From: Phycisphaerales bacterium
GTDB taxonomy: Bacteria > Planctomycetota > Phycisphaerae > Phycisphaerales > UBA1924
Direction of reading: 5' to 3'
Length of the DNA stretch: 64,000 bases
NCBI GenBank assembly: GCA_020853975.1
Contig: JADYXW010000015.1
Span: forward strand, 124,001 to 188,000
The first letter of the stretch is position 1. Every line of letters begins with the position of its first letter. This document shows, in pieces, positions 35,091-53,605 of this stretch. The translations under genes and the position numbers were made by a program. The notes below the pieces were generated by a model, which was not told where the DNA came from, did not search any database, and saw only the letters and a program-made list of their open reading frames with translations.

Positions 35091-37031
35091 GTGAGCACAG
35101 GACTGAGCAACTCGTTCGTCTTTTCCCCCCTTCCGAGGGAGATGCCCGCCGGGCTGGGTGCGGCGCCGCTCTTCCCCCACGAGACAGGCACGCTCCGGCT
35201 GAGCGTGGTCGTGAGGTTGGAGCCCCGTGGCGGGGAAGGCCGGTTCATCGTGCTCCGGGAGACGCTGGACGCGCGGGTATATCTCGGCTGCACCGCGGAC
35301 CGTGCGGGGCGCGTGCGGGAGTGGCTCGAGCTCTGGGTGCAGGACGTCTCCGGGCTCGCCCAGGCAACGGTTTCCTACCGCGAGGCCCTGAGCAACACGC
35401 TGCTGGATGCCAGGTGGGCGAAGCGGTGCGAGCTGCTGGCGAAGTCGGGCGGGCTGGTCGCCACCGGGTTTGAGAACGCGCACCCGGCGCCCGTGCTCAT
35501 CGACGTCAAGGCCCTTGCCCCCGTCGCGGCACGGGACGCTCAGGGGGCGACCTGGGCGCTGTGCACCGACGATGGGCTGCTCTCCCGGAAGCAGACGCCG
35601 GCCTACGGCTCGACGCTTGGTCGGCACCTCTTCCAGCCTGCGCTCGGGGACGAGACGCCCCTGCTTCCCGCGGACCTTGCCGATGCCAGGGCGCTGGGCG
35701 CCCCCGCGGGGTGCGAAGCTCTGAACGCCGGCGGCGGACTGATGATGGCCCAGCCCTTTGCGCCATTCGGGTATGAGCAGGTTGTCGATGCCCTCTCGGG
35801 CGTCGATGGCGAGGCCGGCCCGGCGGACAACGTCCTGCAGGTTGCGGCGGCAGCCGCGAGAGGGGTTTCGGGCAGCCTCAACCCCGCCGGGGGGTGGCTC
35901 ATGCTCTCCGCGGCGGGGGCCCCCGCCAGGCTCGTCGAGTCCCTCCACGTCAGGCTGGCGCTCTTTGCGCAGGCGGCCGCGGCCGTGCGGGCCCATGTGA
36001 GCGAGACCGCGGCTCCGATGCTGAATGTGACCGGACGGAGCTTCCGCGTGTCGTTCTCCGACGGCGCCGGCGCTGTCCCCCTGTGGTGGACCACGCGCGT
36101 CTCGCTCGTGGAACCGGGCGAGGGTGTCGAACTCGCCATTCCCTCCACCGCGGCACGGTACTTTGTCGCCGGCAAGGGCTCCGGCCTGTCCATCTATTCG
36201 CCCGCGGCGGTCTCGGTCGCCGGCACGGGCCGGGGTTGGCTGAGGCTGAGAAACGTCGTCGCAGGCGACGCCGGCGGCGTGATCCTGGAGGGAACGCTCT
36301 CGACGCAGGACCGTGTGATTCCGGGCAGGAACGACCTTGTGTGGCTGCGATGCTCCGTGGGCTCCTCTCGCGTCGATCTCTACGCGACCGTGGACGCCAA
36401 GGGCTCGATGGTGCCGGGCGAGGTACGCCTGAGGACGATCCCGCAGCAGTTCTCGGAGGACATGCAGCATCGGCTCAGGCAGGCGCTGGGCGTGCCGATC
36501 CCGGACGTCACGTTCGAGATCGTGCCGTTGCTCTCCTCGCCCTGCGACCTGTATGCGCTGGGCGTGCTGGGCGTGAGGACACTGCTCTCGGGTCCCGGGA
36601 CCCCGCTCCCGGTGGCGCTGGACGAGCTCTTGAGTCTGGCCGGCGCCGCCGCGAAGGCCGCGGACAGCGGCGAGACGCTCGAAGCCCGGATTGGAAGGCT
36701 GTTTGCGACCGAGAAGCGCTGGGCCGAGTCCCTCGGGCCTCAGGTGCTCCTGCCGGGCGTGGCAGCAGCGGACGCGGCAGACGTGATCCCGCCCGCGCTC
36801 TGGCACGGCGTTCTGGCGGCGGTTGTTCGGTGTTTCACCGGCCTGGGGCCGGACAGTCGGTGCAAGGACTTCGGCGACGCCCCGCAGGGCGGGCTGCACA
36901 GGGTCTTTGACGGAGTGATCGACGACCTGTACGCTCTCCTGACCGCCTGCCGCACGCTCATCGTGAGCGACTACGGATTGAATGCGGAGGTGCGGGGCGT
37001 GGTCCAGGCGTGTCTTCAGTCGAACAGGTAG
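35091..37031 (+). CDS. Unknown protein at the head of the T6SS-like locus
   Basis: 646 residues from the GTG at 35091 (GGGGAG upstream); a GTG at 35016 is possible but sits before the likely promoter. I do not recognise a family. There is no signal peptide and no clear membrane helix, so it is probably cytosolic. Visible features: beta-rich segments (LRLSVVVRLEPR, VREWLELWVQDVS), and in the C-terminal third a stretch SSPCDLYALGVLGVRTLLSG that resembles kinase subdomain IX (the Asp-x-Tyr-x-Leu-Gly helix), but no catalytic loop or lysine motif was found. Same strand as and 84 nt before the TssJ-like lipoprotein, so most likely part of that locus. Confidence 0.6.
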   Translation: MSTGLSNSFVFSPLPREMPAGLGAAPLFPHETGTLRLSVVVRLEPRGGEGRFIVLRETLDARVYLGCTADRAGRVREWLELWVQDVSGLAQATVSYREALSNTLLDARWAKRCELLAKSGGLVATGFENAHPAPVLIDVKALAPVAARDAQGATWALCTDDGLLSRKQTPAYGSTLGRHLFQPALGDETPLLPADLADARALGAPAGCEALNAGGGLMMAQPFAPFGYEQVVDALSGVDGEAGPADNVLQVAAAAARGVSGSLNPAGGWLMLSAAGAPARLVESLHVRLALFAQAAAAVRAHVSETAAPMLNVTGRSFRVSFSDGAGAVPLWWTTRVSLVEPGEGVELAIPSTAARYFVAGKGSGLSIYSPAAVSVAGTGRGWLRLRNVVAGDAGGVILEGTLSTQDRVIPGRNDLVWLRCSVGSSRVDLYATVDAKGSMVPGEVRLRTIPQQFSEDMQHRLRQALGVPIPDVTFEIVPLLSSPCDLYALGVLGVRTLLSGPGTPLPVALDELLSLAGAAAKAADSGETLEARIGRLFATEKRWAESLGPQVLLPGVAAADAADVIPPALWHGVLAAVVRCFTGLGPDSRCKDFGDAPQGGLHRVFDGVIDDLYALLTACRTLIVSDYGLNAEVRGVVQACLQSNR

Positions 37032-37115
37032 AGATCGTGGTCTGACAGGGTCCGAAGCAAGACAATCCACGCTGCCGGAGGTCGGGGCGTGCGACTCACC
37101 AGGAAGGGGTTCTCA

Positions 37116-37646
37116 ATGAACATGCTGACTCGCGTAGCGATGGTGGTGGTGGCGGTGGCGACGGTGGTCCTGGCGACCGGGTGCCAGCAGAGCGTGCGCG
37201 GTTGGAAGGGTGACCTGGTCATCACGCCCGACGCCAGCCTCCGGGACTCCTCGGGCAAGATGCCCCCCGTCGAGGTGGACGTCGTGGCCATCAATGAAAC
37301 CGATGAGATGGTTCGCGGCTACCCGGTGGACAACTGGTTCTCCGGCGAGGACAAGCAGCGTGCCTCCTGCGCCCCGTACACCAAGTCCCTCGCCTTTGGC
37401 CCCGGCGCCGAGAGCGCGATCGTGATCTCCAAGAGCGATCCCATCTGGAAGAAGTGGGAGGAGCGCGGCTACAAGGACCTGGTGGTCTTTGCCACCGCCC
37501 GCAGCATGCGGGCCTCCCCCGGCGGGTTCGACGGGCGCCGGAAGGTCATCCCTCTCACGAACGACAAGTGGGACGTGGGGCAGATCAACTTCGAGGTCAA
37601 GTCCAGCGGCGTGGAGTGCCCCACGCCCATGAAGATCCAGAAGTAA
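37116..37646 (+). CDS. Lipoprotein in the TssJ position of the T6SS-like locus
   Basis: 176 residues from the ATG at 37116, chosen for AGGAAGGGG just upstream; a GTG at 37089 is a weaker start. Signal peptide MNMLTRVAMVVVAVATVVLATGC with a lipobox-like ATGC (Cys23). The mature 150 residues alternate hydrophobic beta stretches (VEVDVVAINETDE, YKDLVVFATARSM, VGQINFEV), fitting a small beta-sandwich such as TssJ, the outer-membrane lipoprotein that holds TssM. The match to TssJ is by size, topology and neighbourhood rather than strong motif identity. Confidence 0.55.
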   Translation: MNMLTRVAMVVVAVATVVLATGCQQSVRGWKGDLVITPDASLRDSSGKMPPVEVDVVAINETDEMVRGYPVDNWFSGEDKQRASCAPYTKSLAFGPGAESAIVISKSDPIWKKWEERGYKDLVVFATARSMRASPGGFDGRRKVIPLTNDKWDVGQINFEVKSSGVECPTPMKIQK

Positions 37647-37680
37647 CCCACGCCAAGAGCGGGCGATTCCGCGGGACAAC

Positions 37681-40600
37681 ATGCCGAACTTCGGACGATT
37701 TGAGGCCTACGACGAGTTTGGCTCGAGCGGGCCCTACGCGGTATGGCGCGCCCGCCCTGCGGGCACCGAAGGCCCGGGCCCCGCGGTCGTCAAAGCCTGC
37801 CTCACGCAGGACATGCTCGCTGATGAGCAGGTCGTGGAGAGGCGCGCGGCGAGGTTCCTGGCTTCGGCGGAGTTCCAGCGCGGGCTCGCGGGCGACGGCT
37901 GGGCCCCGATCAGCGACGTGGGGCGGCTGCCCACCCACGCCTACTACATCACCGAGTGGTACCCGAGCACGCTGGAGCGGGTGATCGAGGCCCGCAGCAT
38001 CGCGGGCCTCGCGGAAGAGGACCCGGTCTCCGGCGCCAAGGCGGTTGTACACCTGATCTCAGGGATCACCCAGGGGCTGGAGCGGGTGCAGGCCGCGTCG
38101 GGCCGCGGGCACGGCAACCTCAAGGCTACCAACGTGCTCCTGAGGCTCGGTGACGATGGCGACCTGGCCGGGGCGGGAGTGGCGCTCGCCGACCCTGCGC
38201 CGCCTGAGACCATCGGGTCAGATTCGGTGCGCGACGACGCGAGGGCGATCGCCTCGCTCATCCACAGGCTTGTGACCGGGCGCCCCGCGCCCGGGGCCGG
38301 CGCCGTGCAGGTGGGGCCGGAGTGGTCCAGGCTCGGCTCGCCCGGCCCGGGCGAGGAGCTGAGGCGAGTCTGCGAGGCGCTGCTGAACGTGCAGGCCGGT
38401 GCCGCGCCGCCAACGCCCGCGCAGGTGAGGGAACAGCTCGCGGCGTGCCTCCGCGCCAAGATGGTGCGGAAGAAGAGCCCGGTGCCGCTCGTCGCGTCCG
38501 TGGTGGGCGTGCTGCTGGTGGGCGGGGGCGTGGCGGGGTACTTCCTGACGCGGCCCGATGAGCCCAAGCGCAGGCCCGGCGCCGATCCGCGAGAGCCGAC
38601 GCCCCAGGCGTGGCAGGCCACCACGACCAAATTGCTGCAGGACGCGGAGAGCACAATGCTCACTGTCCGGCCCTGCATGACGGACGACCAACTCGCGCGA
38701 TCGGACGAGCTCGGGCGGCGCCTGGCCAAGGCCATGGAGGGGCTGCCACTTCTGGCCTCGGCGGCATGGCCCCAGGGAGAGGGTGAGGCCGTCCTCGCGG
38801 GCCGTGCGGCGATGACGAAGCAGATCGAGGAGGCGGAGGCGGAGATCGGCGCGGTCAAGGCCGCCGCCCTGGGTCTCAAGACCGAGGTCGGCGACTGCAG
38901 CGAGGAAGTCGACCCGAGGCGTCCGGATCGCCAGCAGTGGCTGACGGAGCGTGAGGCGAGGCTCAAGGCGCAGATCGCGGCAATGACGACGGAACTTGCG
39001 GCGGAACTCTCGGCAGCGCCGGACGAGGCGCTGCGGGGGGCGGTCACGGGCCTGACAGACCAGGCGACGGCGATGGTGCAGAAACTGGACGCGGTGCGTG
39101 CGCAAGAGTGGCCCACGGTCTCGGCGGGTGGCGACTCGGAGGCGATCAAGGCCGCGCGCGAGTCCCGCGCGAGGATCCGCTCCGATGTGCAGAGTCTGGC
39201 GAACGAAGTGGGGCAGGTGACGCAGGCGGCGGAGAAGACGCTCCGGGACAGCCGCGATCGGGTGAAGGGGTATCTGGACGCCCGTTCGCGCGACCGGGAC
39301 AAAGTGTCATCGTCGGACAGGCTCCGCGAGGCGTACGCGGTGGCGATCTCGGCGGTGAAGCGCACGGACCCGACGTGGGCGGAAGCCAAGGCGAAGGCCG
39401 ATGCAATTCAGGCATGGATCGGCGCAGTCGACCGCGAGCTGGCGATCGACCTCCAGGTGGCGATGCCCCCGGGATCGCAGGTGCGTCCGGACCCTGCGGG
39501 CCGATTCTTCAGCCAGGCGAGAGAGCGTGCGATCGAGGCGGCGGTGAGGCCGGTCGAGGACCGCGGCGGCATCCCGAACTCCGAGGCGGACCTGGCGCTC
39601 GCAACCAAGGAAAAGGCGGCGCTAGTCGCGCTCGCGGAGGAGATCCGCACGCTCCTGGGCCAGGCCGGGCGCATCGAGCAGCTCCTCGCGCGAGCGAGCG
39701 GTTACGACGAACCAACGGACGGCGCGAGCGTGAAGTCCCTGCTGGAAGCGATCGAGGGCTCGCCCCGGCTCGCGGATCTTGAGGCCTCGGTCGAGGTGGT
39801 GGTCGAGCGCGCCAGGCGACTGCGGACCGCGGCCGGCACTTCGGGCGTCGTGCCCGCGTCGGCGGGGCTGAAGGACACGGGTGGGGACCCCGCCCGCGCG
39901 TCAGAGGCCATCACGTTCTGGCGCGCGCTCCGTTCCGCCGGGTATCCGGCCGATGCAGCCCAGATCGCCGAGGCCCCGGCCCTGGTGAACCAGCAGCTCC
40001 TGCCCGCGCTCCGCGGCATGGGCGACAAGGCGCGGGGTGAGCAGCTCGCGAGCGAGGCCGTCGACGCGATGCGCGGCGCCTGGTTCGCATTCGTGCACGA
40101 GAAGGCGGGCGGCGACGCGGCCTCCGTGGACGCGGCGTTCAAGGCCTCCGAGGCCTATGGCCTCAGCGAGCAGGACCTCAGCGCAAGGCTCGAACCTTTC
40201 GCCAAGTTCAACCGCGAGCGATGGAAGCTGCTTGCGACCCTCGACAGCGTGGCGTCCATACCCGACCGCAACCAGCAGATCTCCCGGCTCCAGCAGCTCG
40301 CGGCGGGGCTGCAGGGAGCGGCGCAGACACTGGGCGTGGGCGGCCGGGCCGACGTGCAGGACCTCTTCACGAACAAGCGCAAACTTGCCCCGTATCTCGC
40401 GGGCAAGTTCTCCAACTTCGAGGAGGTCGGTCCCGCGACGCCGGGCGCCGCTGCCCGCTGGAAGATGGAGGAGCAGGACGAGGACAACGGCCTGTGGGCC
40501 GTGTACAGCCTGGGGGGCCACCGCCTGCGGTTCCAGCGTGTGGGCGAGAGCGAGGAGCCCGCGAGCTTTGTCTGCACGACAGAGGTCAGCGTCGGCCTGT

Positions 40601-41553
40601 TCCAGAGCGTGATGCAGACCGGCAGTGCCTGGCAGGACGTGCGGGGCAAGCTGACGATGCTCCCAAAGAACGATCAGCGCAAGGGGCCACGGGCGTGGGT
40701 CTGGGACGACGCGGGCCTGGCGATGGGCGTGAGCCAGCCGACGAGCGGTGCGGACCTCAACGGCCGGGGCTGGTTCCGCGTGCTCCCGGGGGACATCAAC
40801 GCCGCGAATGGCCCGCAGGTGGCGCTCTATCCGCAGGGGAGAGAGCCCCCGCCGCCTTCCGCCGCGAGCCCGGTGAACTACGTGTCGACAGACGGCGCGC
40901 TGTTCATGGCGGCACTGATGGGCTGTCGCGTGCCGACGGTCGATGAGTGGACCCAAGCCGGCGGGGCCGGTGGGGGCGCGGCGAACCGTCGAGACAGCGT
41001 GTGGCAGGGGCAGCACGCCCACTTGCGTGCGCAGCTCGATGCGGCGCCCGAAAAGGACCGGATGAGCCTGCAGAACAACCTGCCCTGGCCCGGCGCGGAC
41101 ATCTTCACGCCCCCGGAGGCGGCGCCCGCGCCCGCGGCCGCGGACGGCGACCCCGCGGTTGCCCAGTCAGACTCGACGCTGTGGTTCCAGCCCGTGACCG
41201 AGGGAACAACCGCGTTTGAGAATCTCGAGGGCAACGTGGCGGAAATCGTGCTGGCCAACGAAGCCGCGTATGTCCGGGCTTCCGTGCCCCCGAAGGAGGG
41301 CCTGCTCGGAGCGATCAAGTCGGCGGTCAAGTCGGCGGACGTCCGTGTGGTGGGCGCCTCGGCGCTCTCTCCCGCGGGTGTGTCACCATCGACGCCCTAC
41401 GGTGTGAAGAGTGTGAGCGCGTACTGGTCCGATGTCGGGTTCCGCCTCGCGTTCTCAGCAAGCGCGGGCGGCGGTGGGGGTGGACGCCTGGCGGAAAAGC
41501 TGCGACGAATCCTCACCATCGACACGCCGTTCCTCACCCGCACCGGCGGGTGA
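37681..41553 (+). CDS. Pseudokinase - membrane helix - coil - FGE-like fusion (PpkA/TagR-type)
   Basis: 1290 residues. Residues about 1-255 read as a Ser/Thr kinase fold: a degenerate glycine loop (EFGSSGPYAVW), the ATP lysine in AVVKACL (Lys38), the catalytic loop HGNLKATNVLL (144-154), in which HRD is His-Gly-Asn so the catalytic Asp is lost while Asn151 is kept, a remnant DFG (ADP) and the late helix DDARAIASLIHRLVTGRP. One membrane helix follows at about 266-287 (PLVASVVGVLLVGGGVAGYF), then some 650 residues of helical, charged coil. Residues about 955-1275 match the FGE/sulfatase-modifying-factor fold: CRVPTVDEWTQAGG, LEGNVAEIV and YWSDVGFRLAF, without the catalytic cysteines. In Pseudomonas type VI systems PpkA kinase is controlled by the FGE-like TagR; here both are one chain. 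Likely a signalling receptor of the locus. Confidence 0.75.
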   Translation: MPNFGRFEAYDEFGSSGPYAVWRARPAGTEGPGPAVVKACLTQDMLADEQVVERRAARFLASAEFQRGLAGDGWAPISDVGRLPTHAYYITEWYPSTLERVIEARSIAGLAEEDPVSGAKAVVHLISGITQGLERVQAASGRGHGNLKATNVLLRLGDDGDLAGAGVALADPAPPETIGSDSVRDDARAIASLIHRLVTGRPAPGAGAVQVGPEWSRLGSPGPGEELRRVCEALLNVQAGAAPPTPAQVREQLAACLRAKMVRKKSPVPLVASVVGVLLVGGGVAGYFLTRPDEPKRRPGADPREPTPQAWQATTTKLLQDAESTMLTVRPCMTDDQLARSDELGRRLAKAMEGLPLLASAAWPQGEGEAVLAGRAAMTKQIEEAEAEIGAVKAAALGLKTEVGDCSEEVDPRRPDRQQWLTEREARLKAQIAAMTTELAAELSAAPDEALRGAVTGLTDQATAMVQKLDAVRAQEWPTVSAGGDSEAIKAARESRARIRSDVQSLANEVGQVTQAAEKTLRDSRDRVKGYLDARSRDRDKVSSSDRLREAYAVAISAVKRTDPTWAEAKAKADAIQAWIGAVDRELAIDLQVAMPPGSQVRPDPAGRFFSQARERAIEAAVRPVEDRGGIPNSEADLALATKEKAALVALAEEIRTLLGQAGRIEQLLARASGYDEPTDGASVKSLLEAIEGSPRLADLEASVEVVVERARRLRTAAGTSGVVPASAGLKDTGGDPARASEAITFWRALRSAGYPADAAQIAEAPALVNQQLLPALRGMGDKARGEQLASEAVDAMRGAWFAFVHEKAGGDAASVDAAFKASEAYGLSEQDLSARLEPFAKFNRERWKLLATLDSVASIPDRNQQISRLQQLAAGLQGAAQTLGVGGRADVQDLFTNKRKLAPYLAGKFSNFEEVGPATPGAAARWKMEEQDEDNGLWAVYSLGGHRLRFQRVGESEEPASFVCTTEVSVGLFQSVMQTGSAWQDVRGKLTMLPKNDQRKGPRAWVWDDAGLAMGVSQPTSGADLNGRGWFRVLPGDINAANGPQVALYPQGREPPPPSAASPVNYVSTDGALFMAALMGCRVPTVDEWTQAGGAGGGAANRRDSVWQGQHAHLRAQLDAAPEKDRMSLQNNLPWPGADIFTPPEAAPAPAAADGDPAVAQSDSTLWFQPVTEGTTAFENLEGNVAEIVLANEAAYVRASVPPKEGLLGAIKSAVKSADVRVVGASALSPAGVSPSTPYGVKSVSAYWSDVGFRLAFSASAGGGGGGRLAEKLRRILTIDTPFLTRTGG

Positions 41554-41558
41554 GCGCA

Positions 41559-41810
41559 TCAGCGGTCGGAGTTGGAGGGGACGGAGGCGGTGGCCGTCGA
41601 AGCGTCTTTCTTCCGCGCCGCGACGGTCCGCGTGGTCTGAGTCTGTGAAGCCAAGGCGGCGCCGAGGCCGTCGCTCGCGGCGATGTTCCCACCCTCGCGG
41701 TGCCCGAACGTGAAGATGCCAAACCCCGAACCACGGGAACAGCCGGTTCCCGTGAGGCAGACGAGCGCAAGGCCTGCCCCGAGGGTGAACATGCGGGCGC
41801 GATGGATCAT
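41559..41810 (-). CDS. Small predicted lipoprotein, opposite strand
   Basis: 83 residues. The reverse-strand ATG at 41810 has AGGAGG 8 nt upstream, the strongest ribosome site of the locus. Signal MIHRARMFTLGAGLALVCLTGTGC ends in a lipobox-like GTGC with Cys24. The mature tail of about 59 residues is Ala/Ser/Thr/Asn-rich and unstructured. It ends 5 nt after the convergent pseudokinase stop. No family recognised; its size and place suggest a small envelope peptide associated with the locus. Confidence 0.6.
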   Translation of the reverse strand: MIHRARMFTLGAGLALVCLTGTGCSRGSGFGIFTFGHREGGNIAASDGLGAALASQTQTTRTVAARKKDASTATASVPSNSDR

Positions 41811-41965
41811 TGGGAGTCCTCCTCGTGAAATGGACTCATCGACGGTCCGCCGGGGAGGCCGGAGGGGCTTCGAGGAGGCTCGCCGCGGAGGGGGTTGACG
41901 GTACCGCCCGTCGCGGTTGTGCGGAGCGGTTGTCGGACTGGGCGGACGAACGGGAAGGAGATGTG

Positions 41966-42010: not shown

Positions 42011-42067
42011 AATGGCGTCCCGTCGGGGGCGGGGTTGTGGCGTGGCACTTGCGTGGGAGGAGGCGGG

Positions 42068-43036
42068 TTGATCGAGCCAACGAGCGAGACGGGCCGCAAG
42101 GCGATGACGCTTGCCAATCGGCTGCGCGTGCTCTACGCGGAGCTGTCGGACCAGACCGGAGACATGCGGGGCGAGCAACTGCGGGACGAGGTTCAGCGGG
42201 CGCTTTCTTCCCTGCAGCCCAGCGCGCGGGAGCCCTTTCTTCAGGAACTTGTCCGCCAGTTTCCGTTGTGGTCTGCGAGCGATCGCGACCCCGCGCCGGC
42301 GCCGCCGCGTCCGGCACCGGTTTCCGCCTCGGTGCCCGCGGTCTCGGAGCCCCGGGACCCCAAGTCCGTCGCGGAGAAACTGATCGAAGTGACCAAGGGT
42401 CTGGGCGAGGCCGAGAAGCAGCAGATCGCGGCGAGGCTCAGCGTTGCCGGGCTGCTGCCCAGGCCGACGGCCTCTGCGGCTGCCCCGGCGGCGGCCGGCC
42501 CCAGCGGCGCCGTGAGCGCCTCGGGGGCGGCGGACCTTCGGAAGCACCTGGGCATGCCCGCCGATGCGCCCATCGACGCCGGCAAGGCCGTGGAGCTGGC
42601 GGCGGTGCTCGCGGAGTTCGTCCTCAAGCTCGAGCCCTACGCGTGCATGTTCTGGAAGGACATCGCACCGGACGCCAAGAACCAGGTCTACCAGACGCTC
42701 AACCGGGACCTGGGCAAGTTCATGTCCGGGGATGAGAAGGTCACCAAGGAGGCGGTCTCCAAGGGCGTGTTCAACCTCCGCAGCCTGGTGTCACTCCTGC
42801 TCAAGGGCGTCTCCGACGCGGGCAAGCAGTTCTCGCGCGATCACATCTCCCGATTCTCGGTCGACGAGATCACAAAGGCGGCGGGCCCGGGGACCCTGAT
42901 GACCAGCAAGGACGTGCTCTGCTGGAAGCAGTATGTCAGGCAGATGGAAGGAGTGGACGCGGCGTCGTTGGAGAAGAGGCTCAAGTCGGTCATCGCCAAG
43001 GACGTCGATGCCGGTCTCAGTCAGGTCATCAAGTGA
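42068..43036 (+). CDS. T6SS-like-locus protein of unknown family
   Basis: 322 residues from a TTG at 42068, chosen because GGAGGAGG precedes it; an ATG at 42104 would have a poorly placed site. N-terminal about 90 residues: helical (LRVLYAELSDQTGDMRGEQL), then a Pro/Ala-rich linker, then a C-terminal all-helical domain of about 150 residues (KAVELAAVLAEFVLKLEPYA, DLGKFMSGDEKVTKEAVSKG). Position directly before tssK and the shape of the helical domain are reminiscent of the C-terminal domain of Fha/TagH proteins, but there is no FHA domain and I see no firm motif. No signal or membrane helix; probably a cytosolic partner of TssK/TssL. Confidence 0.55.
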   Translation: MIEPTSETGRKAMTLANRLRVLYAELSDQTGDMRGEQLRDEVQRALSSLQPSAREPFLQELVRQFPLWSASDRDPAPAPPRPAPVSASVPAVSEPRDPKSVAEKLIEVTKGLGEAEKQQIAARLSVAGLLPRPTASAAAPAAAGPSGAVSASGAADLRKHLGMPADAPIDAGKAVELAAVLAEFVLKLEPYACMFWKDIAPDAKNQVYQTLNRDLGKFMSGDEKVTKEAVSKGVFNLRSLVSLLLKGVSDAGKQFSRDHISRFSVDEITKAAGPGTLMTSKDVLCWKQYVRQMEGVDAASLEKRLKSVIAKDVDAGLSQVIK

Positions 43037-45331: not shown

Positions 45332-48300
45332 ATGCTGGGCAGCTTTGCCAACCTCCCAAGGCCGGTGCAGGCCGTGGTGATGCTCGCGTCGGGCGCGAGC
45401 CTGACGTCGTTCGTGCTCGCCGCGGTTCCGGGGCCGTACCAGAGCTTTTTCATGTACGTCACGATCGGCATCGTGGCGGTGGTGGTGCTGCTGGCGCTCT
45501 TCAAGCTTGTGCTGATGCTGCGCGACAAGGCCAAGAGCGGCCCGTTCGCGAGCATGCTGAGCAAGGGCGCCAGGGGGGCCGCGGACCCCGCGCTGAAGGC
45601 CCGCATGGATGATCTGCGCCGGAAGTTCGAGGAGGGCGTCACCACGTTCAAGCAGGCGGGCAAGGACCTGTACAGCCTGCCCTGGTACCTGCTCGTGGGC
45701 CCGCCGGGCTCGGGCAAGACGGAGGCGCTGCGGCACTCCAACGTGGGCTTCCCGCCGGGGCTGCAGGACCCGCTGCAGGGCTCGGGCGGCACGCTGAACA
45801 TGCACTGGTGGTTCACGAACCACGCGGTGGTCATCGACACCGCGGGGCGCATGTTCATGGAGGGCGCCGACGAGGGAGGCGGGTCCGAGTGGCGAGAGTT
45901 CCTGAAGCTGCTGAAGAGCGCGAGGCCGAACTGCCCGGTCAACGGGCTGCTGCTGGTGATCTCCAGCGAGAGCCTGCTGAAGGACGGCGCGGAGAAGATC
46001 GAGCAGACCGCCGGGGCGATCGCCCGGCAGCTCGATGTCGTGCAGCGCACGCTCGACGTGAGGTTCCCCGTCACGGTGGTGGTGACGAAGTGCGACAAGA
46101 TCATCGGGTTCCGCGAGTTCTTCGAGCACATCGGCGACCCGAACCTGCAGCACCAGATCCTTGGATGGAGCAACCCCTCGCCCCTGGACGAGGCCTTCAA
46201 GCCCGATCAGGTGGACAAGCACCTGGAGTCCGTGCGTCAGAAGCTGATGAAGCGCCGCATGGGCCTGATCCAGAACCCCGTGCACACGACCGACGCGAAC
46301 GCCCGGCGCACGGACCAGATCGACGAGATGTTCGAGCTGCCCGACAACCTGGTGCGGATCGCGCCGAGGCTGCGCCGGTACCTGGAGATGATCTTTGTCG
46401 CGGGCGAGTGGAGCCCCAAGCCCCTGTTCCTGCGTGGCATCTACTTCACGAGTTCCATGCGCGAGGGCCAGGCGCTGGACGTGTCGCTCGCGCAGGCGCT
46501 CGGCGTCGACGTGGAGTCCATCCCCGGCAGCCGCGACTGGGACCGCGAGAAGTCGTACTTCCTCCGCGACCTGTTCATGTCGAAGGTGTTCAAGGAGAAG
46601 GGGCTGGTCACCCGCGCGACCAACGTCAGCAAGGCGCTGGCGAAGCAGCGCGCCCTGCTCGTGGGCGGCGCGATCGCGACGGCGGTGGTGCTGGGCGGGC
46701 TGACCGTGCTCGGCTACTTCCAGTTCAACGCCTCGCTGGGGCCGCCCAGCAAGACCTGGTCCGCGGTGCGGGGCGCGATGGTGGGAGACCCCGGGCGCGA
46801 CATCACCCCTCTTGACCCCAAGGAGACGAGCCTGATCGCGCGGTCCACCGACGCGGGCGGCACGGGCTGGGTCTACCAGGGCCGCAAGGACTTCACCAAC
46901 CTCGATGTGCTGGGCTCCGACATCGTGAACCCGCTGGAGCTGATCGTCGAGACCGGGTCGTACAAGGCCATCGACCCACCCCTGATCGCGCGCCCCGCGG
47001 CCCCGATGCTGGGATTCCGCAACTCCTTCCTGGACTCGCAGGAGGCGGCGCACCGCAGGGTGATCGAGCACACCACGCTCAGCCCGCTGCTCGAAGCGGC
47101 CCGCAGCCGCCTGGAGCAGGAGAAGGACTGGGGCCCCGACGCGGTCGCGGCGCTGGCGCAGCTCATCCGGGTGCAGACGTACTCCTACAAGTCCAAGCCG
47201 GCGTTCGACGAGGGGCCGAGCCTCGCCGATCTGAAGGACGCGGCGAAGGACGTCCGCCTGCCCACGGACCGGGGCGAGATCCCCGCGATCGACGTGGACG
47301 CGCTCTTCCGGTACGTGCTCGGGCCCGCCGCGGACGAGGCCAAGGGCTATGCGGGCGACCGGAGCAAGGTTCGTGAGGCGGTCAAGCGGGCCTATCCGAA
47401 CGGTCTGGGCGCGATCGAAGTCTCAGCGCTGCTGGGCGGGAAGGACGAGACGAACCGGCGCGTGAATGAGCGTGCCGCGGCCAACCTCGCGGAGCGCATG
47501 CGCACGGGCGGTTCGCCTACGGGCGACATGGGCGCGCTGCTCATGCTCCAATCCGGGCTTGCGGAGTTTGCCGCTGCCGAGGCGCAGCTCCGCGCCCACC
47601 CGATGCTGCGCGCCGGCGCGACCGGGGCCGCGGGCCTGCCCCGCACCGTGGAGCAGTACGACACGTTCGCCAAGGAAGCGGGTGCGCAGTTCAAGCGCCT
47701 TGCCGACGCAAAGGCGAAGGTCGATCAGGCTGTGACGAGGCTGGGCTCGAAGGCGGACAACCCGCTGGACGCGCTGACAGCCGCGGGCGAGCAGTGGGAG
47801 CGCGAGGCGGGCTCGTTCTTTGACCAGCTCATCCAGCAGCTCCCCAAGGGCCTGGACACAGGCCTGGAGGGCAAGGCGGCGGAGCTCGCGGAGAAGGCGT
47901 TCAACGAGCGGACGCCCGAGGAGCTGAGGTCGCTGCTCACCAAACTGGTGGAGCACCGCAGGACTGTGGTGGCGGCGGTCAAGGCCTCGCTGGAAGCCGT
48001 GCGGGCCGACGTGCAGCGTTCGGCGCCCCTCGCGGTGCCGGGGCGCACCTCGGCGCAGGTCGACGCGCGGGCCTACGCCGCCCGGTACGCGCTCTACGAG
48101 CTGGGCTCGGGAGAGCTGACGGCGGCGGCGCAGCCCGTGGGGGCGGTGACCTCCGTGACAGCGAAGATCGACCAGATCGACGCCGGGCCCCGGCGCGTGG
48201 GCGAGCAGGCGCAGCCGTGGCTCTCCTGGACACCCGCCCAGGCCGGCCTCAAGGGGCTCGCGCCCGACCAGGTGACCTCGCTCACGACCGATCGCGACGA

Positions 48301-49894
48301 GGCCGAGCGGCTGGCCCGTCGCGTTTCGGAGATCGCGGGTGCGCGCCGCGTGTACGAAGCCATCCGCCAGGCGATCGCCGACTGGCCCAAGGACGTTCCC
48401 GCCCTCCGCGAGCGGGTGAAGGCTCTGGCAGATGCGAAGATCGAGGGCGGCGCGCGGCGGGCGGAAAGGCCTCGGCTGCTGCTCACGGAGATGAAGGACG
48501 GCGGCGAGTTCGACCGCGTGTACTTCGTCGAGGCCGGGCGCGAGGTGATGGGCGACTGGGCCCGCGTGAGGACGCTCATCGAGCCCGCGTCGGGGGCCGA
48601 GCGCCAGGTGATGGACGCGGAAGCGCTCAGGGGCGGTGGCTACCTCGCGGCGGGTCGCGTGACCGAGGACTACGTCGTGGAGTATGCCCGCTACTGGCGT
48701 CGCCAGGCGACGGACGCCACGCAGGTGAGCGTGAACACCTGGGCGGATTTCGCCGGGCAGATCGACGACATGATCCCGGACAACATCGTCGATCTGAAGC
48801 AGCTTCAGGACGTGACGACGGCGGCGCTGGACTCCATCCCGAGCGTGCTCATGGCGCCCGCGGCTCTCTCGGATCACAAGACCGACGTGGCCAAGGCGTT
48901 CGGCGGGCTCGCGACCGAAGCCTTCAGCCGCGAGGGCGCGATCCGCGATTCGCTGCGCAACTGGCGGCGGCTCGCGGGCGTGCAGGGCGGTCCCGAGGGC
49001 GCCGTCGGGCTGCTGCGGGCGTCGTACAACGCGGGCGATGCCCAGGCGGAGTACTTCGCGCAGTACGGCAAGGGCGTCGCGTACTGGGATGGCGTGGTCC
49101 TTCGGGGCGTGGAGTTGCTCACCGAGGCGACCCAGGGCGACATCGCCCGCGCTCAGAACCTGCTCATGTCCTCGAACAAGGCGCCGCTGTGCTTCGGGCC
49201 GGCTTCCATGGGCGACCTGAGCCCGGATGAGCTCCGTGCCGTTGCCGCCGCGGCCTCGAAGGTGGCCAGCGGGAGCGGGGGCACCGGCACCACCGTCAAG
49301 CCCTCCGCGGGCATGGACCCTCGTGTGAACGACCTGCTCTCAAGGCTGTTCGGGGCGAACTTCATCAAGGCGACGGCGGAGCGGCAGACGTGGTTCACCC
49401 GCCTGCAGCGGGTTCTGGATTCGGTCGCGGGCAAGGACCCCGTCCGGCTGAGCCTCAACCTGCTCTCCGATGCGCCGCCCCAGGGCGCCGCGGGCAAGAC
49501 GCTGGCCGCGGACAGCGGCTACAAGTTCGCGGCCCTCTACGTGAACGACAAGAAGGTGGGCGAGGCGTTCAACATCTTCAGCGCCTCGACGATCCCCGCG
49601 GACAAGGCCAAGGACCTGGTTGTGACTCTCCCGGCGCAGTCCAGCTTCATCGGGCTCTACCGCGAGGACCCGGGCCGGACGGATCGGGCGCCCGACGAGC
49701 GCATCGCGCTCCCCGAGCACTGGAGTCTGCTGGGGGCGATGCTCAAGCAGGAGCAGAGCGATCGCGTTGGGCCCGGCGTGTGGCGAGTCATGGCCTCCAA
49801 CAACACCATGTACCTGTGGCTGACCATCAAGATCGAGCCGGACGTGCCGGCACGGGCCGACTGGCCCAGCGTCAGCACGTGGCCCGGGCAGTGA
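45332..49894 (+). CDS. tssM: Type VI secretion membrane protein TssM (IcmF family), enlarged
   Basis: 1520 residues, longer than the 1100-1300 usual in proteobacterial TssM. Two N-terminal membrane helices (about 13-55), a cytosolic GTPase-like domain with Walker A GPPGSGKT (123-130), Walker B VVIDTAGR and NKxD-like VTKCDK. A third helix (about 446-470, LLVGGAIATAVVLGGLTVLG) leads to a roughly 1000-residue outer part, mostly helical, ending in a beta-rich domain (SLNLLSDAPPQGAAGKTL, MYLWLTIKIEPD) like the TssJ-binding end of TssM. AGAAGGAG precedes the ATG. It spans the envelope and links TssL/TssK to the outer-membrane lipoprotein. Confidence 0.92.
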   Translation: MLGSFANLPRPVQAVVMLASGASLTSFVLAAVPGPYQSFFMYVTIGIVAVVVLLALFKLVLMLRDKAKSGPFASMLSKGARGAADPALKARMDDLRRKFEEGVTTFKQAGKDLYSLPWYLLVGPPGSGKTEALRHSNVGFPPGLQDPLQGSGGTLNMHWWFTNHAVVIDTAGRMFMEGADEGGGSEWREFLKLLKSARPNCPVNGLLLVISSESLLKDGAEKIEQTAGAIARQLDVVQRTLDVRFPVTVVVTKCDKIIGFREFFEHIGDPNLQHQILGWSNPSPLDEAFKPDQVDKHLESVRQKLMKRRMGLIQNPVHTTDANARRTDQIDEMFELPDNLVRIAPRLRRYLEMIFVAGEWSPKPLFLRGIYFTSSMREGQALDVSLAQALGVDVESIPGSRDWDREKSYFLRDLFMSKVFKEKGLVTRATNVSKALAKQRALLVGGAIATAVVLGGLTVLGYFQFNASLGPPSKTWSAVRGAMVGDPGRDITPLDPKETSLIARSTDAGGTGWVYQGRKDFTNLDVLGSDIVNPLELIVETGSYKAIDPPLIARPAAPMLGFRNSFLDSQEAAHRRVIEHTTLSPLLEAARSRLEQEKDWGPDAVAALAQLIRVQTYSYKSKPAFDEGPSLADLKDAAKDVRLPTDRGEIPAIDVDALFRYVLGPAADEAKGYAGDRSKVREAVKRAYPNGLGAIEVSALLGGKDETNRRVNERAAANLAERMRTGGSPTGDMGALLMLQSGLAEFAAAEAQLRAHPMLRAGATGAAGLPRTVEQYDTFAKEAGAQFKRLADAKAKVDQAVTRLGSKADNPLDALTAAGEQWEREAGSFFDQLIQQLPKGLDTGLEGKAAELAEKAFNERTPEELRSLLTKLVEHRRTVVAAVKASLEAVRADVQRSAPLAVPGRTSAQVDARAYAARYALYELGSGELTAAAQPVGAVTSVTAKIDQIDAGPRRVGEQAQPWLSWTPAQAGLKGLAPDQVTSLTTDRDEAERLARRVSEIAGARRVYEAIRQAIADWPKDVPALRERVKALADAKIEGGARRAERPRLLLTEMKDGGEFDRVYFVEAGREVMGDWARVRTLIEPASGAERQVMDAEALRGGGYLAAGRVTEDYVVEYARYWRRQATDATQVSVNTWADFAGQIDDMIPDNIVDLKQLQDVTTAALDSIPSVLMAPAALSDHKTDVAKAFGGLATEAFSREGAIRDSLRNWRRLAGVQGGPEGAVGLLRASYNAGDAQAEYFAQYGKGVAYWDGVVLRGVELLTEATQGDIARAQNLLMSSNKAPLCFGPASMGDLSPDELRAVAAAASKVASGSGGTGTTVKPSAGMDPRVNDLLSRLFGANFIKATAERQTWFTRLQRVLDSVAGKDPVRLSLNLLSDAPPQGAAGKTLAADSGYKFAALYVNDKKVGEAFNIFSASTIPADKAKDLVVTLPAQSSFIGLYREDPGRTDRAPDERIALPEHWSLLGAMLKQEQSDRVGPGVWRVMASNNTMYLWLTIKIEPDVPARADWPSVSTWPGQ

Positions 49895-49918
49895 GCGGGG
49901 ATAGAAAGGACTATCGGA

Positions 49919-52900
49919 GTGGGCAAGGAAGGGCCTGTTCGGAACGCGCGCGTGCACCTGGCCGCCTTCGGGAAGCACCCGGGCTGGGATGATCACATCG
50001 AGGAGATCGGGCTGGATCACGAGGATCTGGTCCGGATCAAGCGGGAGCTCTACGCCGAGGGGCTGGCGGGCAACATCGACTCCGGAGCGTGGGAGAAGCT
50101 CCCGGACGAGCAACGCCTGCCCGCGTTCAAGCACCTGTTCTACTGGCGGCGTTCCGCGGGCCTGGTGATCGGGCGGATGTGGTCCAGCCGCGACGGCAAG
50201 GGGCGCACCAAGTACCCGATGGTTGTCTGCGCCATGGTCGAGGGCGTTCCCGACGCGTGGGCCATCCAGCACGTGCTGCCCCGCCTGGAGCAGGTGGAGG
50301 CCAAGTGCGTGCAGACCGGGTCCGCGGAGCTTGTCAGGCTTGCGATCGGCGAAGCGCGGCGCGGGCTCGAAGACCAAGCGGCCCTGCTCGCCACCTCCGC
50401 CGCCAGCCAGTCGGGCGATGACGCAGGGCTCATCCGGGCGCTCGTGACGAGCCCGGCCCTGAACATCCCCGAAGAGACCGGGGGCGGGCTGACCCGGGTG
50501 CTCTACGAGATCGACCGCGAGATGGGCGAGTTCAAGGGCGGCGCCGGCGCCAAGCGCACCGCCTCAAAGATCGTGGGTGAGGCCGGCGCCCAGCACATCC
50601 GCGTTCCCAGGTGCCTGCAGCCCGGGGGCGACGCCGCACGGGCCTGGATGCTCCTGCTCGCCCAGGACATCGCGGACGCGACATCTATCTTGGTCATCGA
50701 GCCCATGGACGCGGCGTTCGTGGACATCATCGTCGGCAACCCGCGCCCACAGCAGTTCTTCTGCGTCAGGGCCGGGGACAAGGGCCTCGCGCTGACTTCC
50801 GAGGTGCCCTACACGATCGATCCAGCCTTCAAGGCCTCGGCGTCCGAGCGTGTGAAGGCCTGGAGCGCCGGCAACATCAGGCTTGCGGGCCGGCGCGGGT
50901 CCGCGGTGGGAAGCGCGCCCGCCGAGGTGGCCGGTGATCGCAAGGGTTTCCCCCGAGGAGTGCTGCTTGCGGCGGGCGGGGTCATCGCGGCGATTGTCCT
51001 CGGTGTCGGGCTCTGGGCCGCGCTCTCGGGCGGACCGGGCGAGCCGGATCCGGCGCCGGCTCCGGAGGGACCCGGTCAGCAGGGCAACAGCACGCCGGTT
51101 CCGATTCAGCCCGCGAACATCGAGAAGCCCACTCCCCCCAAGCCCGCGCCCAGCTACGGGGCGGACGATCCGCGATCGGGCTGGGACATCGACGATCAGG
51201 TCACCCGCGCCCGCGCGCTCCTGGCGGCGCTGGAGGTAGAACTCGCCGCGGAGGGTCTGAAGCCCGATCCGGCGGTCAAGACCCGCATCGACCGCGCCGT
51301 CGACCGCGCCGACAACTTCGTGCGGAGCCGGGCGCTGTCCGCGGCGTCGCGCGATGCCATCGTGAGCGACATGACATCCGTTGATGGCGAGGTTCGTGCG
51401 GTGATGACGCAGCTCAAGAGCGATATCGACCGCAGCCACGAGCGGGTGCGGGCCTTCCTGGACGAAGAGGCGTCCCAGGCCCAGGTGAAGAGCGAGGCCC
51501 TGAAGGCGGCTTGGAGCACCGGGCTGCGGGCCATCGACCACACGAAGGGTTGGGAACATGCGCGCGCGCGACATGCTGCCGTCGTTGCGGCGCTGAAGGA
51601 GGCCGAAGGGCTGCTTGCTTCTTCGGGCGAGTTCAAGGCCCCGACGCTGGCGGAGGTGCAGACCCCCGCGCTTACGGCGGTCATCGACGCTCGGCGCGAG
51701 AAGGCCATGCGGGAAGTCGCGGCCGCCGCGGGCACGGGCGACTCGGCCCGTTCGGGTGACGCTGCGCGTGAGCTCGCGACCTGGACGGAGGAGGCCCGCG
51801 CGTTGTTTGCAAAGGCCGGGAAGATTAGCCAGCTCCTGGGCGGGGGTTACGCCTGGGCCGAAGCCGCCCCCGGCGGTGATTCCATCAAGGGACTTCACGA
51901 GCAACTCTCCGGGATGGCGGGGTGGGACGACTTCTCCGCGGCGCTCGCCGGGCTGAACGCCCGCTGCTCCGCGCTCAAGGACATCGCGGCGGGCGAAGAC
52001 CCCAACGCGCTGGTCGGGACGATCCGCAAGTCTCGGGCGGACCTCGCGAAACTCGGCCTCTCCGAGGCGAGCACCGCGTGGGGGAGGCTCGCCGAAGTTC
52101 CGGGTTGGCCCGCGAAGGCGGACGACGCGCGCGAAGCCGCCAAGGTGCTCAAGGACGACATGCTACCCCTCATCGGGCGCGAGCCCGGCGCGGAGCGGCG
52201 CCGGGAGCTCGAGGCAGGCGCGAAGCAGGCCGGGGCGCGGGTGTGGGGCCGGTTCGCGGGGACCGCCGCCTTGGACGCCCAGGGGGTCGACGCGGCGTTG
52301 GAGACCCGTGGGGCGCTGGGCGCGGACGACCTGGTCGAGCAGGGCGTGCCGGACTGGGCCCGGTTCAATCTGGCACGTGGACGGCTCGCAAGGGCCGTGG
52401 ACGCGGCGGACGCCCTGCCCGGGCGTGCGCGGGTGGACGCCATCCGGGCCGCCATGGAAGGCTTCGTGGCTCTTTCGTCCGCACTTCCGGTCGCGGCCAC
52501 GGGCGAGGCCAAGCAGTTGGTCGGTGCGATGAAGGAACTGCTCGACTCGCCCGGGGAGATTGACCTGGCAAAGCTCGGTCCTGGCGGGGCGGGCTTCGAG
52601 CTCGTGTCGTCGGACGCGGAGTCGGTGGTGTACCGACTAGGGAGCACTCCGGTCGAGTTCCGCCGTCTGGAGCCGACGGGCGAGGGAGTGTCTTTCGTCT
52701 CCACCACCGAAATGTCGGTGGGCGCGTTCATTGACCTCGTCGGGGGCCGGGCAGAGGAGTTCCGGACCATCATGCCAAAGTCGGACGCGGGGGGGATCGA
52801 CCCTCGCGTGGGTCCGCGCGTGTGGGGATGGCAGGGATCCTCTCTCGCGGTGAGTTCGCCCGCGGGCCCGGGCGACCTGGGCCAGGGCTGGGTCCGGATC

Positions 52901-53605
52901 AAGACGCAGATGGCGGGGCGCGAGTACTACCCGGCCGGGATGAAAGTCGATCCCCCGAGCAGGGATCACCCGATGCAGTACCTCTCGCCGCACGCCGCCG
53001 TGCTGGCGGCTCGCCTCGCCGGGTGCCGCCTGCCGACGGTGGACGAGTGGACGGCGGCAGGAGGAGCGGTGGGAGCAACGAACCTGCGAGACGCGTCGTG
53101 GAAGAAGGTGCACGATCACCTTCGCCAGTTTGCGTCTTCGGGGCCGGAGTTCCCGGGGGCGGGGCTGTTCTGGCCCACCGGGGTCACCCGCAAGAGCCCT
53201 CTCGACGACGATCAGCCGGCTGTAAGCAACGATGACAACCTGGTTTGGTTCGCACCCGTCACGGCTGGGGAAGGCAAGTTCAAGCACCTGGCCGGCAACG
53301 TGGCGGAGTATGTGACCCATGAGGCAGTGGATTGGGAGAGCGTGGTAGCGACCCGAGAGGCCGTGGACGGCGCTGTTGGAAAGGGCGAAAAGGTGCGGAT
53401 CGTGGGAGGTTCGGCCCTGTCCCCCGCGGATGTGAAGCTCGATCAGGCCTACCCGCTGACCCCCCAATCGCGAGAGGGGTACTCCGATGTCGGGTTCCGT
53501 CTCGCGTTTGGCGCCCCGAGGGCGGCCGCGGCGGCAAGCACGGCCGAGCGGGTCCGGAAGGCGTTGACCGCATCGGGCTACCTTACTGGGGAGCAGCGCA
53601 AGTAG
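49919..53605 (+). CDS. TagF (ImpM) - membrane helix - coil - FGE-like fusion
   Basis: 1228 residues from a GTG with AGAAAGGA upstream. The first 300 residues are TagF-like: FGKHPGWDDHIEEIGLDHED, the LFYWRRSAGLVIGRMW core and GRTKYPMVVCAMVEG. One membrane helix (about 348-368, VLLAAGGVIAAIVLGVGLWA) is followed by a 500-residue, Ala/Glu-rich helical coil and then an FGE/SUMF fold from about 920 to 1210: GCRLPTVDEWTAAGGA, LAGNVAEYV and YSDVGFRLAFG, again without catalytic cysteines. The tail closely parallels that of the pseudokinase fusion, implying a duplicated module. TagF is a soluble repressor of type VI firing in Pseudomonas; the fused, membrane-anchored form with its own sensor-like domain is unusual. 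Last gene of the locus. Confidence 0.8.
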   Translation: MGKEGPVRNARVHLAAFGKHPGWDDHIEEIGLDHEDLVRIKRELYAEGLAGNIDSGAWEKLPDEQRLPAFKHLFYWRRSAGLVIGRMWSSRDGKGRTKYPMVVCAMVEGVPDAWAIQHVLPRLEQVEAKCVQTGSAELVRLAIGEARRGLEDQAALLATSAASQSGDDAGLIRALVTSPALNIPEETGGGLTRVLYEIDREMGEFKGGAGAKRTASKIVGEAGAQHIRVPRCLQPGGDAARAWMLLLAQDIADATSILVIEPMDAAFVDIIVGNPRPQQFFCVRAGDKGLALTSEVPYTIDPAFKASASERVKAWSAGNIRLAGRRGSAVGSAPAEVAGDRKGFPRGVLLAAGGVIAAIVLGVGLWAALSGGPGEPDPAPAPEGPGQQGNSTPVPIQPANIEKPTPPKPAPSYGADDPRSGWDIDDQVTRARALLAALEVELAAEGLKPDPAVKTRIDRAVDRADNFVRSRALSAASRDAIVSDMTSVDGEVRAVMTQLKSDIDRSHERVRAFLDEEASQAQVKSEALKAAWSTGLRAIDHTKGWEHARARHAAVVAALKEAEGLLASSGEFKAPTLAEVQTPALTAVIDARREKAMREVAAAAGTGDSARSGDAARELATWTEEARALFAKAGKISQLLGGGYAWAEAAPGGDSIKGLHEQLSGMAGWDDFSAALAGLNARCSALKDIAAGEDPNALVGTIRKSRADLAKLGLSEASTAWGRLAEVPGWPAKADDAREAAKVLKDDMLPLIGREPGAERRRELEAGAKQAGARVWGRFAGTAALDAQGVDAALETRGALGADDLVEQGVPDWARFNLARGRLARAVDAADALPGRARVDAIRAAMEGFVALSSALPVAATGEAKQLVGAMKELLDSPGEIDLAKLGPGGAGFELVSSDAESVVYRLGSTPVEFRRLEPTGEGVSFVSTTEMSVGAFIDLVGGRAEEFRTIMPKSDAGGIDPRVGPRVWGWQGSSLAVSSPAGPGDLGQGWVRIKTQMAGREYYPAGMKVDPPSRDHPMQYLSPHAAVLAARLAGCRLPTVDEWTAAGGAVGATNLRDASWKKVHDHLRQFASSGPEFPGAGLFWPTGVTRKSPLDDDQPAVSNDDNLVWFAPVTAGEGKFKHLAGNVAEYVTHEAVDWESVVATREAVDGAVGKGEKVRIVGGSALSPADVKLDQAYPLTPQSREGYSDVGFRLAFGAPRAAAAASTAERVRKALTASGYLTGEQRK

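What the first reader, a model, noticed from the sequence alone, without database searches (positions are those of the whole stretch)
35091..53605. Type VI-like locus with TssK-TssL-TssM but no sheath, tube, spike or ClpV
tssK, tssL and tssM are consecutive and clear, with a lipoprotein upstream in the TssJ role. But the 18.5-kb locus, bounded by the liv operon and the TPS pair, has no TssB, TssC, Hcp, VgrG, TssE, TssF, TssG, TssA or ClpV. Instead it has giant signalling fusions and unknown proteins. TssK normally bridges baseplate and membrane complex, so its presence without TssF/TssG is striking. Either the rest of the machine is elsewhere in the genome, or this is a derived envelope complex that keeps the membrane part of a type VI system for another use.
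Basis: partly seen in the sequence, partly recalled or inferred. Interest (0 to 1): 0.88.

Follow-up and report, generated by a model that had tools for sequence, protein, structure and literature searches.

The report
T6SS half with embedded exoprotein-secretion genes
The locus is the first half of a complete bacterial type VI secretion 'crossbow' that runs past the window's end and has genes for a giant surface protein set into its middle; related bacteria have repeatedly lost the crossbow's tail and baseplate but kept its membrane anchor and the surface-protein genes.

Summary
The genes are as described, but 'no sheath, tube, spike or ClpV' is a window-edge effect. On the same contig and strand, tssA, tssB and tssC begin 3.3 kb past the window end, right after a giant TpsA exoprotein gene, and the contig ends inside tssC. 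Hcp, TagJ/ImpE, TssE, TssF, TssG and TssH lie on a second contig and VgrG on a third; a sister genome carries the whole set colinearly on one contig. The upstream lipoprotein is TssJ by predicted fold. Three unusual features remain. (1) A two-partner secretion (TPS) pair sits between tagF and tssA in 28 of 31 T6SS-bearing relatives. (2) The control genes look like a rewired threonine-phosphorylation module: a PpkA-like kinase lacking its catalytic Asp, a probable Fha C-domain without FHA, and TagF. (3) Ten relatives in ten genera have no TssB, TssC, TssF or TssK, yet keep TssL-TssM-TagF-TpsB-TpsA. This state needs at least five changes on the tree, and one locus stands at the same liv-operon site.

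The parts
35016..37031 (+). Pseudokinase-like protein (671 aa) directly after livF; first gene of the cluster (exact start uncertain)
   Evidence: No Pfam or NCBIfam family. AlphaFold model pLDDT 80; all 50 top rows of VIA-align 2 are protein-kinase folds, Z up to 14.5, model 51-652; Foldseek alone finds nothing under E 0.02. Found in 18 T6SS loci.
37089..37646 (+). TssJ outer-membrane lipoprotein
   Evidence: LATGC lipobox. AlphaFold pLDDT 86; Foldseek top hit P. aeruginosa TssJ1 E 9.5e-7; VIA-align 2 Z 12.0 to SciN/TssJ over 129 residues.
37681..41553 (+). PpkA-like transmembrane pseudokinase with periplasmic helical region and FGE-sulfatase-like domain (1290 aa)
   Evidence: Kinase-domain profile matches StkP at E 4e-11. 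Catalytic HRD Asp replaced (HGN here); only 3 of 28 homologues keep Asp. PF03781 E 8e-4, below cut-off.
42035..43036 (+). Probable Fha C-terminal domain protein without an FHA domain (likely ATG start at 42104)
   Evidence: 3 of 23 homologues hit PF20232 T6SS_FHA_C, best E 0.0033; none hits an FHA domain. Present beside tssK in nearly all T6SS loci whose upstream part was held.
43119..44540 (+). TssK
   Evidence: TIGR03353 E 1e-68, PF05936 E 3e-59.
44594..45277 (+). TssL (DotU)
   Evidence: PF09850 E 4e-15.
45332..49894 (+). TssM (IcmF), 1520 aa with Walker A GPPGSGKT
   Evidence: PF14331 E 2e-54, TIGR03348 E 4e-82.
49919..53605 (+). TagF fused to a membrane segment, helical periplasmic region and FGE-sulfatase-like domain (1228 aa)
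   Evidence: 17 of 30 homologues hit TIGR03373 TagF, best E 9e-5; FGKHPGWDDH motif. FGE domain PF03781 E 7e-6, over cut-off. C-terminal half about 30% identical to that of the PpkA-like protein of the sister genome.
53763..55880 (+). TpsB outer-membrane transporter of the two-partner secretion pair
   Evidence: PF03865 ShlB/FhaC E 2e-12.
55978..64000 (+). TpsA giant exoprotein (3757 aa; continues to window-equivalent 67251, beyond the window)
   Evidence: PF05860 TPS domain E 5e-27; single open frame C15:179978-191251.

Best explanation
This is the proximal half of one complete T6SS cluster of a Phycisphaerales-type bacterium. The order is: kinase-like protein, TssJ, PpkA-like pseudokinase, Fha-C, TssK, TssL, TssM, TagF, TpsB, TpsA, TssA, TssB, TssC, Hcp, TagJ, TssE, TssF, TssG, TssH, with VgrG next. 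SHOWN: the genes, their order, completeness and conservation. INFERRED mechanism: TssJLM forms the envelope channel; TssK docks the TssEFG-VgrG baseplate on it; TssA primes the TssBC sheath and Hcp tube; TssH recycles the sheath. Assembly is gated at the inner membrane by two receptors with paralogous periplasmic halves. One has a catalytically dead kinase head and the other a TagF head, and they compete for the FHA-less Fha scaffold, so signalling probably works by binding and not by Thr phosphorylation. The embedded TPS pair exports a giant surface protein, most likely a contact adhesin that holds the target cell for firing, as the lipoprotein TasL does in Vibrio. In relatives that lost the tail, the membrane part and the TPS pair persist, so they may have some use of their own.
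For: Same-contig tssA, tssB, tssC after tpsA. hcp, tagJ, tssE, tssF, tssG, tssH on C27 and vgrG on C9. C15, C27 and C9 align in series to sister contig G002:C17 at 85-88% nt; C27 and C9 ends are 39 bp apart there. TssK, TssC and TssF occur in the same 31 of 121 genomes, all of which have VgrG. TPS inside the cluster in 28 of 31, with 2 undetermined and 1 without. TssJ fold. Pseudokinase motifs. TagF binding Fha independently of the phosphorylation pathway is published (PMC5995506), as is TasL-mediated contact for T6SS killing (PMC9040878).
Against: C27 carries its own diverged tpsA end, tssA (36% aa), tssB (87%) and tssC (78%) besides those on C15, so the C15-C27 join is not simple: tandem partial duplication or strain mixture. 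The adhesin role of TpsA is by analogy only. The Fha-C and TagF assignments rest on weak family scores. No expression or secretion data exist.
Confidence: 0.85

Rival explanations
1. The window's locus itself is a derived, tail-less envelope complex built on TssJKLM, with no contractile machine.
For: Within the window alone no tail gene is seen. Tail-less TssL-TssM-TagF-TPS loci do exist in ten relatives.
Against: tssA, tssB, tssC on the same contig and the rest of the core in the same assembly, colinear with a sister genome. TssK is retained here and missing in every tail-less relative.
Confidence: 0.01
2. The TPS pair is a neutral passenger: an unrelated exoprotein operon that happened to insert into the T6SS cluster of an ancestor and stays by linkage.
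For: TpsB/TpsA are common in the order also without T6SS. The TpsA C-terminal domain and core occur in unlinked TPS pairs too. Linked TpsBs do not form one clade (AU p 1e-4).
Against: 28 of 31 T6SS loci keep it over several families despite rearrangements: inverted in G118, cluster halves swapped in G016. It is kept when the tail is lost. It is also linked in another family of the class outside the order, G418.
Confidence: 0.3
3. The tail-less loci in relatives are decaying relics: T6SS loss is under way and only the TPS genes are selected.
For: Some loci have eroded further: TssM shortened to 885 and 758 aa in G030 and G053, tssJ or ppkA undetected in several, G070 keeps only tagF-tpsB-tpsA, G017 and G034 only TPS. 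TssL and TagF distances relative to TpsB are raised about 1.3-fold in tail-less pairs.
Against: The TssM N-terminal domain is as far from outgroups in tail-less (0.70) as in tail-bearing genomes (0.70). tssL and tssM stay intact or recognisable in ten genera with at least five changes of state on the tree. tssK was removed while its neighbours fhaC and tssL stayed in most.
Confidence: 0.4

Closest known systems
Canonical T6SS (T6SS core TssA-TssM, e.g. P. aeruginosa H1-T6SS)
   Same: All core components found in the assembly; TagF, TagJ/ImpE and a PpkA/Fha-like control module as in H1-T6SS.
   Different: TPS pair inside the cluster; kinase without catalytic Asp; Fha-like protein without FHA domain; FGE-like domain fused to both the kinase-like and the TagF protein; TssM, TssL and TssJ diverged.
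Threonine phosphorylation pathway (PpkA-PppA-Fha-TagF; TagQRST)
   Same: A kinase-fold inner-membrane protein, a Fha-like protein and TagF encoded together.
   Different: Phosphotransfer predicted absent (25 of 28 homologues lack the catalytic Asp); no FHA domain found in the Fha-like protein; PppA not looked for genome-wide.
TasL, the T6SS-encoded contact lipoprotein of Vibrio fischeri (PMC9040878)
   Same: A large surface protein encoded with a T6SS; the proposed role is the same.
   Different: TpsA is a two-partner exoprotein with its own outer-membrane transporter, not a lipoprotein; its role is untested.
IcmF-DotU of the Dot/Icm type IVB system (own knowledge)
   Same: Precedent for TssM/TssL relatives working without a contractile tail, relevant to the tail-less relatives.
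   Different: The window's TssM fits the T6SS model far better than the IVB model (277 against 30 bits); the partner here is a TPS pair.

Membership tests
Type VI secretion system | Membrane complex TssJ-TssL-TssM | tested here: met
   TssL and TssM by profile; TssJ by predicted fold, Z 12.0.
Type VI secretion system | Baseplate TssK, TssE, TssF, TssG and spike VgrG | tested here: met
   TssK in the window; TssE, TssF, TssG on C27; VgrG on C9.
Type VI secretion system | Sheath TssB-TssC, tube Hcp, cap TssA, ATPase TssH/ClpV | tested here: met
   tssA, tssB, tssC on C15 just past the window; hcp and the ClpB-type AAA+ ATPase at the tssH position on C27.
Type VI secretion system | Contraction-dependent secretion of Hcp and effectors | not testable with these tools
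Threonine phosphorylation pathway (PpkA-Fha) | Catalytically competent Ser/Thr kinase | tested here: not met
   HRD Asp replaced in the window (HGN) and in 25 of 28 homologues; predicted inactive, not assayed.
Threonine phosphorylation pathway (PpkA-Fha) | Fha protein with phosphothreonine-binding FHA domain | tested here: not met
   No FHA family hit in any of 23 homologues; only a weak hit to the T6SS_FHA_C domain. An FHA protein elsewhere in the genome was not searched for.
TagF | TagF domain (TIGR03373) over its cut-off | tested here: inconclusive
   17 of 30 members hit, best E 9e-5, the window's copy 17 bits against a cut-off of 41; GK motif invariant.
Two-partner secretion (type Vb) | TpsB transporter plus adjacent exoprotein with N-terminal TPS domain | tested here: met
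   PF03865 E 2e-12 and PF05860 E 5e-27, adjacent and on the same strand.
Type IVB secretion (Dot/Icm) IcmF-DotU | IVB-type IcmF (NF038226) | tested here: not met
   30 bits against a cut-off of 1000, while the T6SS TssM model gives 277.

The most novel reading that the evidence does not exclude
In this bacterial family the T6SS membrane complex is a module with a second job: together with Fha-C, TagF and a pseudokinase receptor it serves a two-partner secretion system (placing, gating or anchoring the giant TpsA exoprotein). It works both inside a full T6SS (the window) and alone, after several separate losses of the contractile tail and of TssK.
Probability: 0.35. Interest if true: 0.85.

Novelty: new variant of a known kind. 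Interest (0 to 1): 0.58.

Why it matters
T6SS membrane parts are usually treated as useful only with a tail. Here the tail, the baseplate and the adaptor TssK were lost together several times, while TssL, TssM, TagF and an embedded exoprotein-secretion pair stayed. That makes testable whether the T6SS envelope complex has a tail-independent function, and whether a two-partner exoprotein is part of how some bacteria engage T6SS targets. The recurrent dead kinase and FHA-less Fha-like protein would show that the usual phosphorylation switch can be replaced by a binding switch.

Tried and rejected
(1) A sheathless system in the window: rejected. (2) The first gene (671 aa) as a diverged TssF, TssG or TssA: rejected; it is kinase-like by fold and real TssA, TssF and TssG exist elsewhere. 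Foldseek alone gave no match under E 0.02; the kinase call rests on VIA-align 2. (3) TPS linked to T6SS across the whole phylum: not seen. In the 392-genome sample TpsB (PF03865) lies near TssK only inside the window's class, although PF03865 is weak for these proteins. (4) T6SS-linked TpsB as one clade: rejected (AU p 1e-4). (5) A TpsA domain unique to T6SS-linked copies: the three stretches tested also occur in unlinked TpsA. (6) One origin of the tail-less state: rejected (AU p 5e-41). (7) A promoter or terminator separating the TPS pair from the tss genes: none found at the tagF-tpsB-tpsA and tpsA-tssA joints, by weak consensus scans. (8) PDB profile matches for TagF and Fha-C: none credible. 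(9) Profile searches of the TssJ alignment against Pfam found nothing beyond a lipid-attachment motif; only the fold showed it. (10) Literature on T6SS in Phycisphaerae, or on TPS pairs inside T6SS clusters: nothing to the point found in titles and abstracts of the open-access library; subscription papers are not held.
Full report
WHAT IS THERE. The window is bases 124001-188000 of contig C15 (194,267 bases) of a 3.12 Mb, 110-contig assembly, 95% complete with 2% contamination. TssK (43119-44540), TssL (44594-45277) and TssM (45332-49894) match their families strongly. No tail gene lies between 35091 and 53605.

WHY 'NO TAIL' IS A WINDOW EFFECT. TssC was sought in the whole assembly and found on the same contig and strand, 5.2 kb past the window end (C15:193240-194148); the contig ends inside that gene. 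Reading on from the window, the TpsA frame that starts at 55978 closes at 67251 (window numbering). It is followed by tssA (67337-68389, ImpA_N E 5e-28), tssB (68499-69002, VipA E 4e-59) and tssC (from 69048). Hcp, TagJ/ImpE, TssE (gp25 family), TssF, TssG and a ClpB-type AAA+ ATPase in the tssH position lie in this order on contig C27, and VgrG lies at the start of C9. In sister genome G002 one contig aligns with C15 (35.9 kb at 85% nt), then with C27 (10.2 kb at 88%), then with C9 (15.7 kb at 85%); the C27 and C9 alignments are 39 bases apart there. TssK, TssC and TssF occur in exactly the same 31 of 121 relatives, and VgrG occurs in all 31 plus two others.

ONE LOOSE END. C27 also carries the end of another TpsA (31% identical), another TssA (36%), TssB (87%) and TssC (78%), upstream of its hcp. 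No exact overlap longer than about 22 bases joins the ends. G000 may therefore have a tandem second tpsA-tssA-tssB-tssC cassette, or the assembly mixes two strains. Which of the two it is cannot be told here. It does not affect completeness.

THE UPSTREAM HALF. The lipoprotein at 37089-37646 has no informative family hit, but its AlphaFold model (pLDDT 86) matches TssJ/SciN: Foldseek E 9.5e-7, VIA-align 2 Z 12.0 over 129 residues at 3.2 A. The protein at 37681-41553 begins with a kinase-fold domain (profile against StkP, E 4e-11) in which the catalytic Asp is replaced: HGN in the window, and Asp kept in only 3 of 28 homologues. After a membrane segment it has a long helical region and an FGE-sulfatase-like domain (weak in this copy). 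The protein at 49919-53605 has a TagF-like head (17 of 30 homologues hit TIGR03373, best E 9e-5; GKH motif), a membrane segment and a periplasmic half about 30% identical to that of the pseudokinase protein (against the sister's copy), ending in an FGE-like domain over its cut-off. The membrane segments were read by eye from the sequence. The gene at 42035-43036 is probably the C-terminal domain of Fha without the FHA domain (3 of 23 homologues hit PF20232, best E 0.0033); this is a tentative call. The first gene (35016-37031) gives a model (pLDDT 80) whose best solved relatives are all protein kinases (VIA-align 2 Z 14.5, 236 residues, rmsd 4.5, model 51-652 with a large insertion). In published systems PpkA phosphorylates Fha or TssL, and TagF represses by binding Fha independently of phosphorylation (PMC3953482, PMC5995506). 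The layout here suggests a switch of the same parts that works by binding. That step is inference.

THE EMBEDDED TPS PAIR. TpsB (ShlB family E 2e-12) and TpsA (TPS domain E 5e-27) lie between tagF and tssA on the same strand, with gaps of 86-158 bp (coordinates) and no terminator-like site found at the joints. Comparing TpsB positions with TssK and TssC positions, the pair lies inside the cluster in 28 of 31 relatives. Two are too fragmented to tell (G004, G033). One has a divergent compact T6SS without it (G014). The linkage survives an inversion (G118) and a swap of the cluster halves (G016) and is seen in one genome of the class outside the window's order (G418). In the phylum sample it was not seen outside the class. 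By analogy with TasL, a T6SS-encoded surface lipoprotein that brings target cells into contact (PMC9040878), TpsA is most likely a contact adhesin. The passenger alternative is not excluded: stand-alone TPS pairs share the tested TpsA parts and linked TpsBs are not one clade.

THE TAIL-LESS RELATIVES. Ten genomes of the window's family, each of a different genus and 90-97% complete, have TssM but no TssK, TssC, TssF or TssB. Hcp is absent in nine; the tenth, G056, has one weak match 2.4 Mb from the locus. VgrG is absent in nine; the tenth, G030, has one on another contig with no tss gene around it. Their loci keep tssL, tssM, tagF, tpsB and tpsA, in most cases with fhaC and the pseudokinase-FGE protein, and in some with tssJ. 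In nine of ten, TpsB is on the TssM contig; in the tenth (G024) the contig breaks inside tssM. On a tree of TssL, TssM, TagF and TpsB, the tail-less state needs at least five changes, all forced by well-supported branches, and a single clade is rejected (AU p 5e-41). Counts of changes cannot by themselves tell gain from loss; loss is inferred from tail-bearing outgroups and from position. In G065 the locus follows livG-livF exactly as in the window, without the kinase-like first gene, tssK and everything after tpsA; in G070 only tagF-tpsB-tpsA remain after livF. So, at least here, the tail was lost in place. TssK lies between fhaC and tssL, so its absence with both neighbours kept needs its own deletion. 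The TssM N-terminal domain diverges from outgroups as much in tail-less as in tail-bearing genomes (0.70 and 0.70), while TssL and TagF are moderately faster relative to TpsB. G030 and G053 have shortened TssM. Both a tail-independent function and slow erosion remain possible. I give the function reading 0.35 in its strong form.

VERDICT. As stated, the finding is a split cluster: an ordinary, complete T6SS core cut by the window edge. What deserves attention is the variant form: an embedded TPS pair, dead-kinase control, and the recurrent tail-less derivatives in sister genera.

Noticed in passing
L148-L167, L117-L124 (G011, G024, G030, G035, G041, G043, G052, G053, G056, G065): Stand-alone tssL-tssM-tagF-tpsB-tpsA loci, mostly with fhaC and a pseudokinase-FGE gene, in genomes without TssB, TssC, TssF or TssK; at least five changes of state on the tree.
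   Followed up: yes
L048 (G000:C27) 8100-12236, against L047 4337-7267: A second, diverged tpsA-end/tssA/tssB/tssC set on C27 (TssA 36% identical) besides that on C15: tandem duplication of the cassette or strain mixture.
   Followed up: partly
L118 (G070:C64:1-7045), L117 (G017), L120 (G034): Further stages of reduction: tagF-tpsB-tpsA alone after livF in G070, and TPS pairs with no tss genes in G017 and G034.
   Followed up: partly
L153 (G030) and L162 (G053): TssM shortened to 885 and 758 aa in two sister tail-less genomes, with tagF following closely: the periplasmic half seems lost.
   Followed up: partly
L055, L058, L064, L065, L066 (also G026, G042, G050, G010, G060): About ten relatives carry a second, diverged TssC-like gene (E 1e-26 to 1e-48); in the two loci read closely (L058, L064) it has no obvious T6SS neighbours. 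A TssB-like match precedes it in G039.
   Followed up: partly
L078, L098 (G014:C41): A compact, divergent T6SS without detected TagF, PpkA-like or TPS genes; its genome's TPS pair is on another contig.
   Followed up: no
L059 (G118:C1:3653875-3654933): A second TssC-like gene lies directly after tssC in G118.
   Followed up: no
L114 (G000:C28:1855-7190): A second, stand-alone TPS pair (TpsA 1142 aa) in the window's genome; its TpsB groups with other unlinked copies.
   Followed up: partly
L090, L116 (G015:C19): Three hcp genes in a row in the G015 cluster.
   Followed up: no
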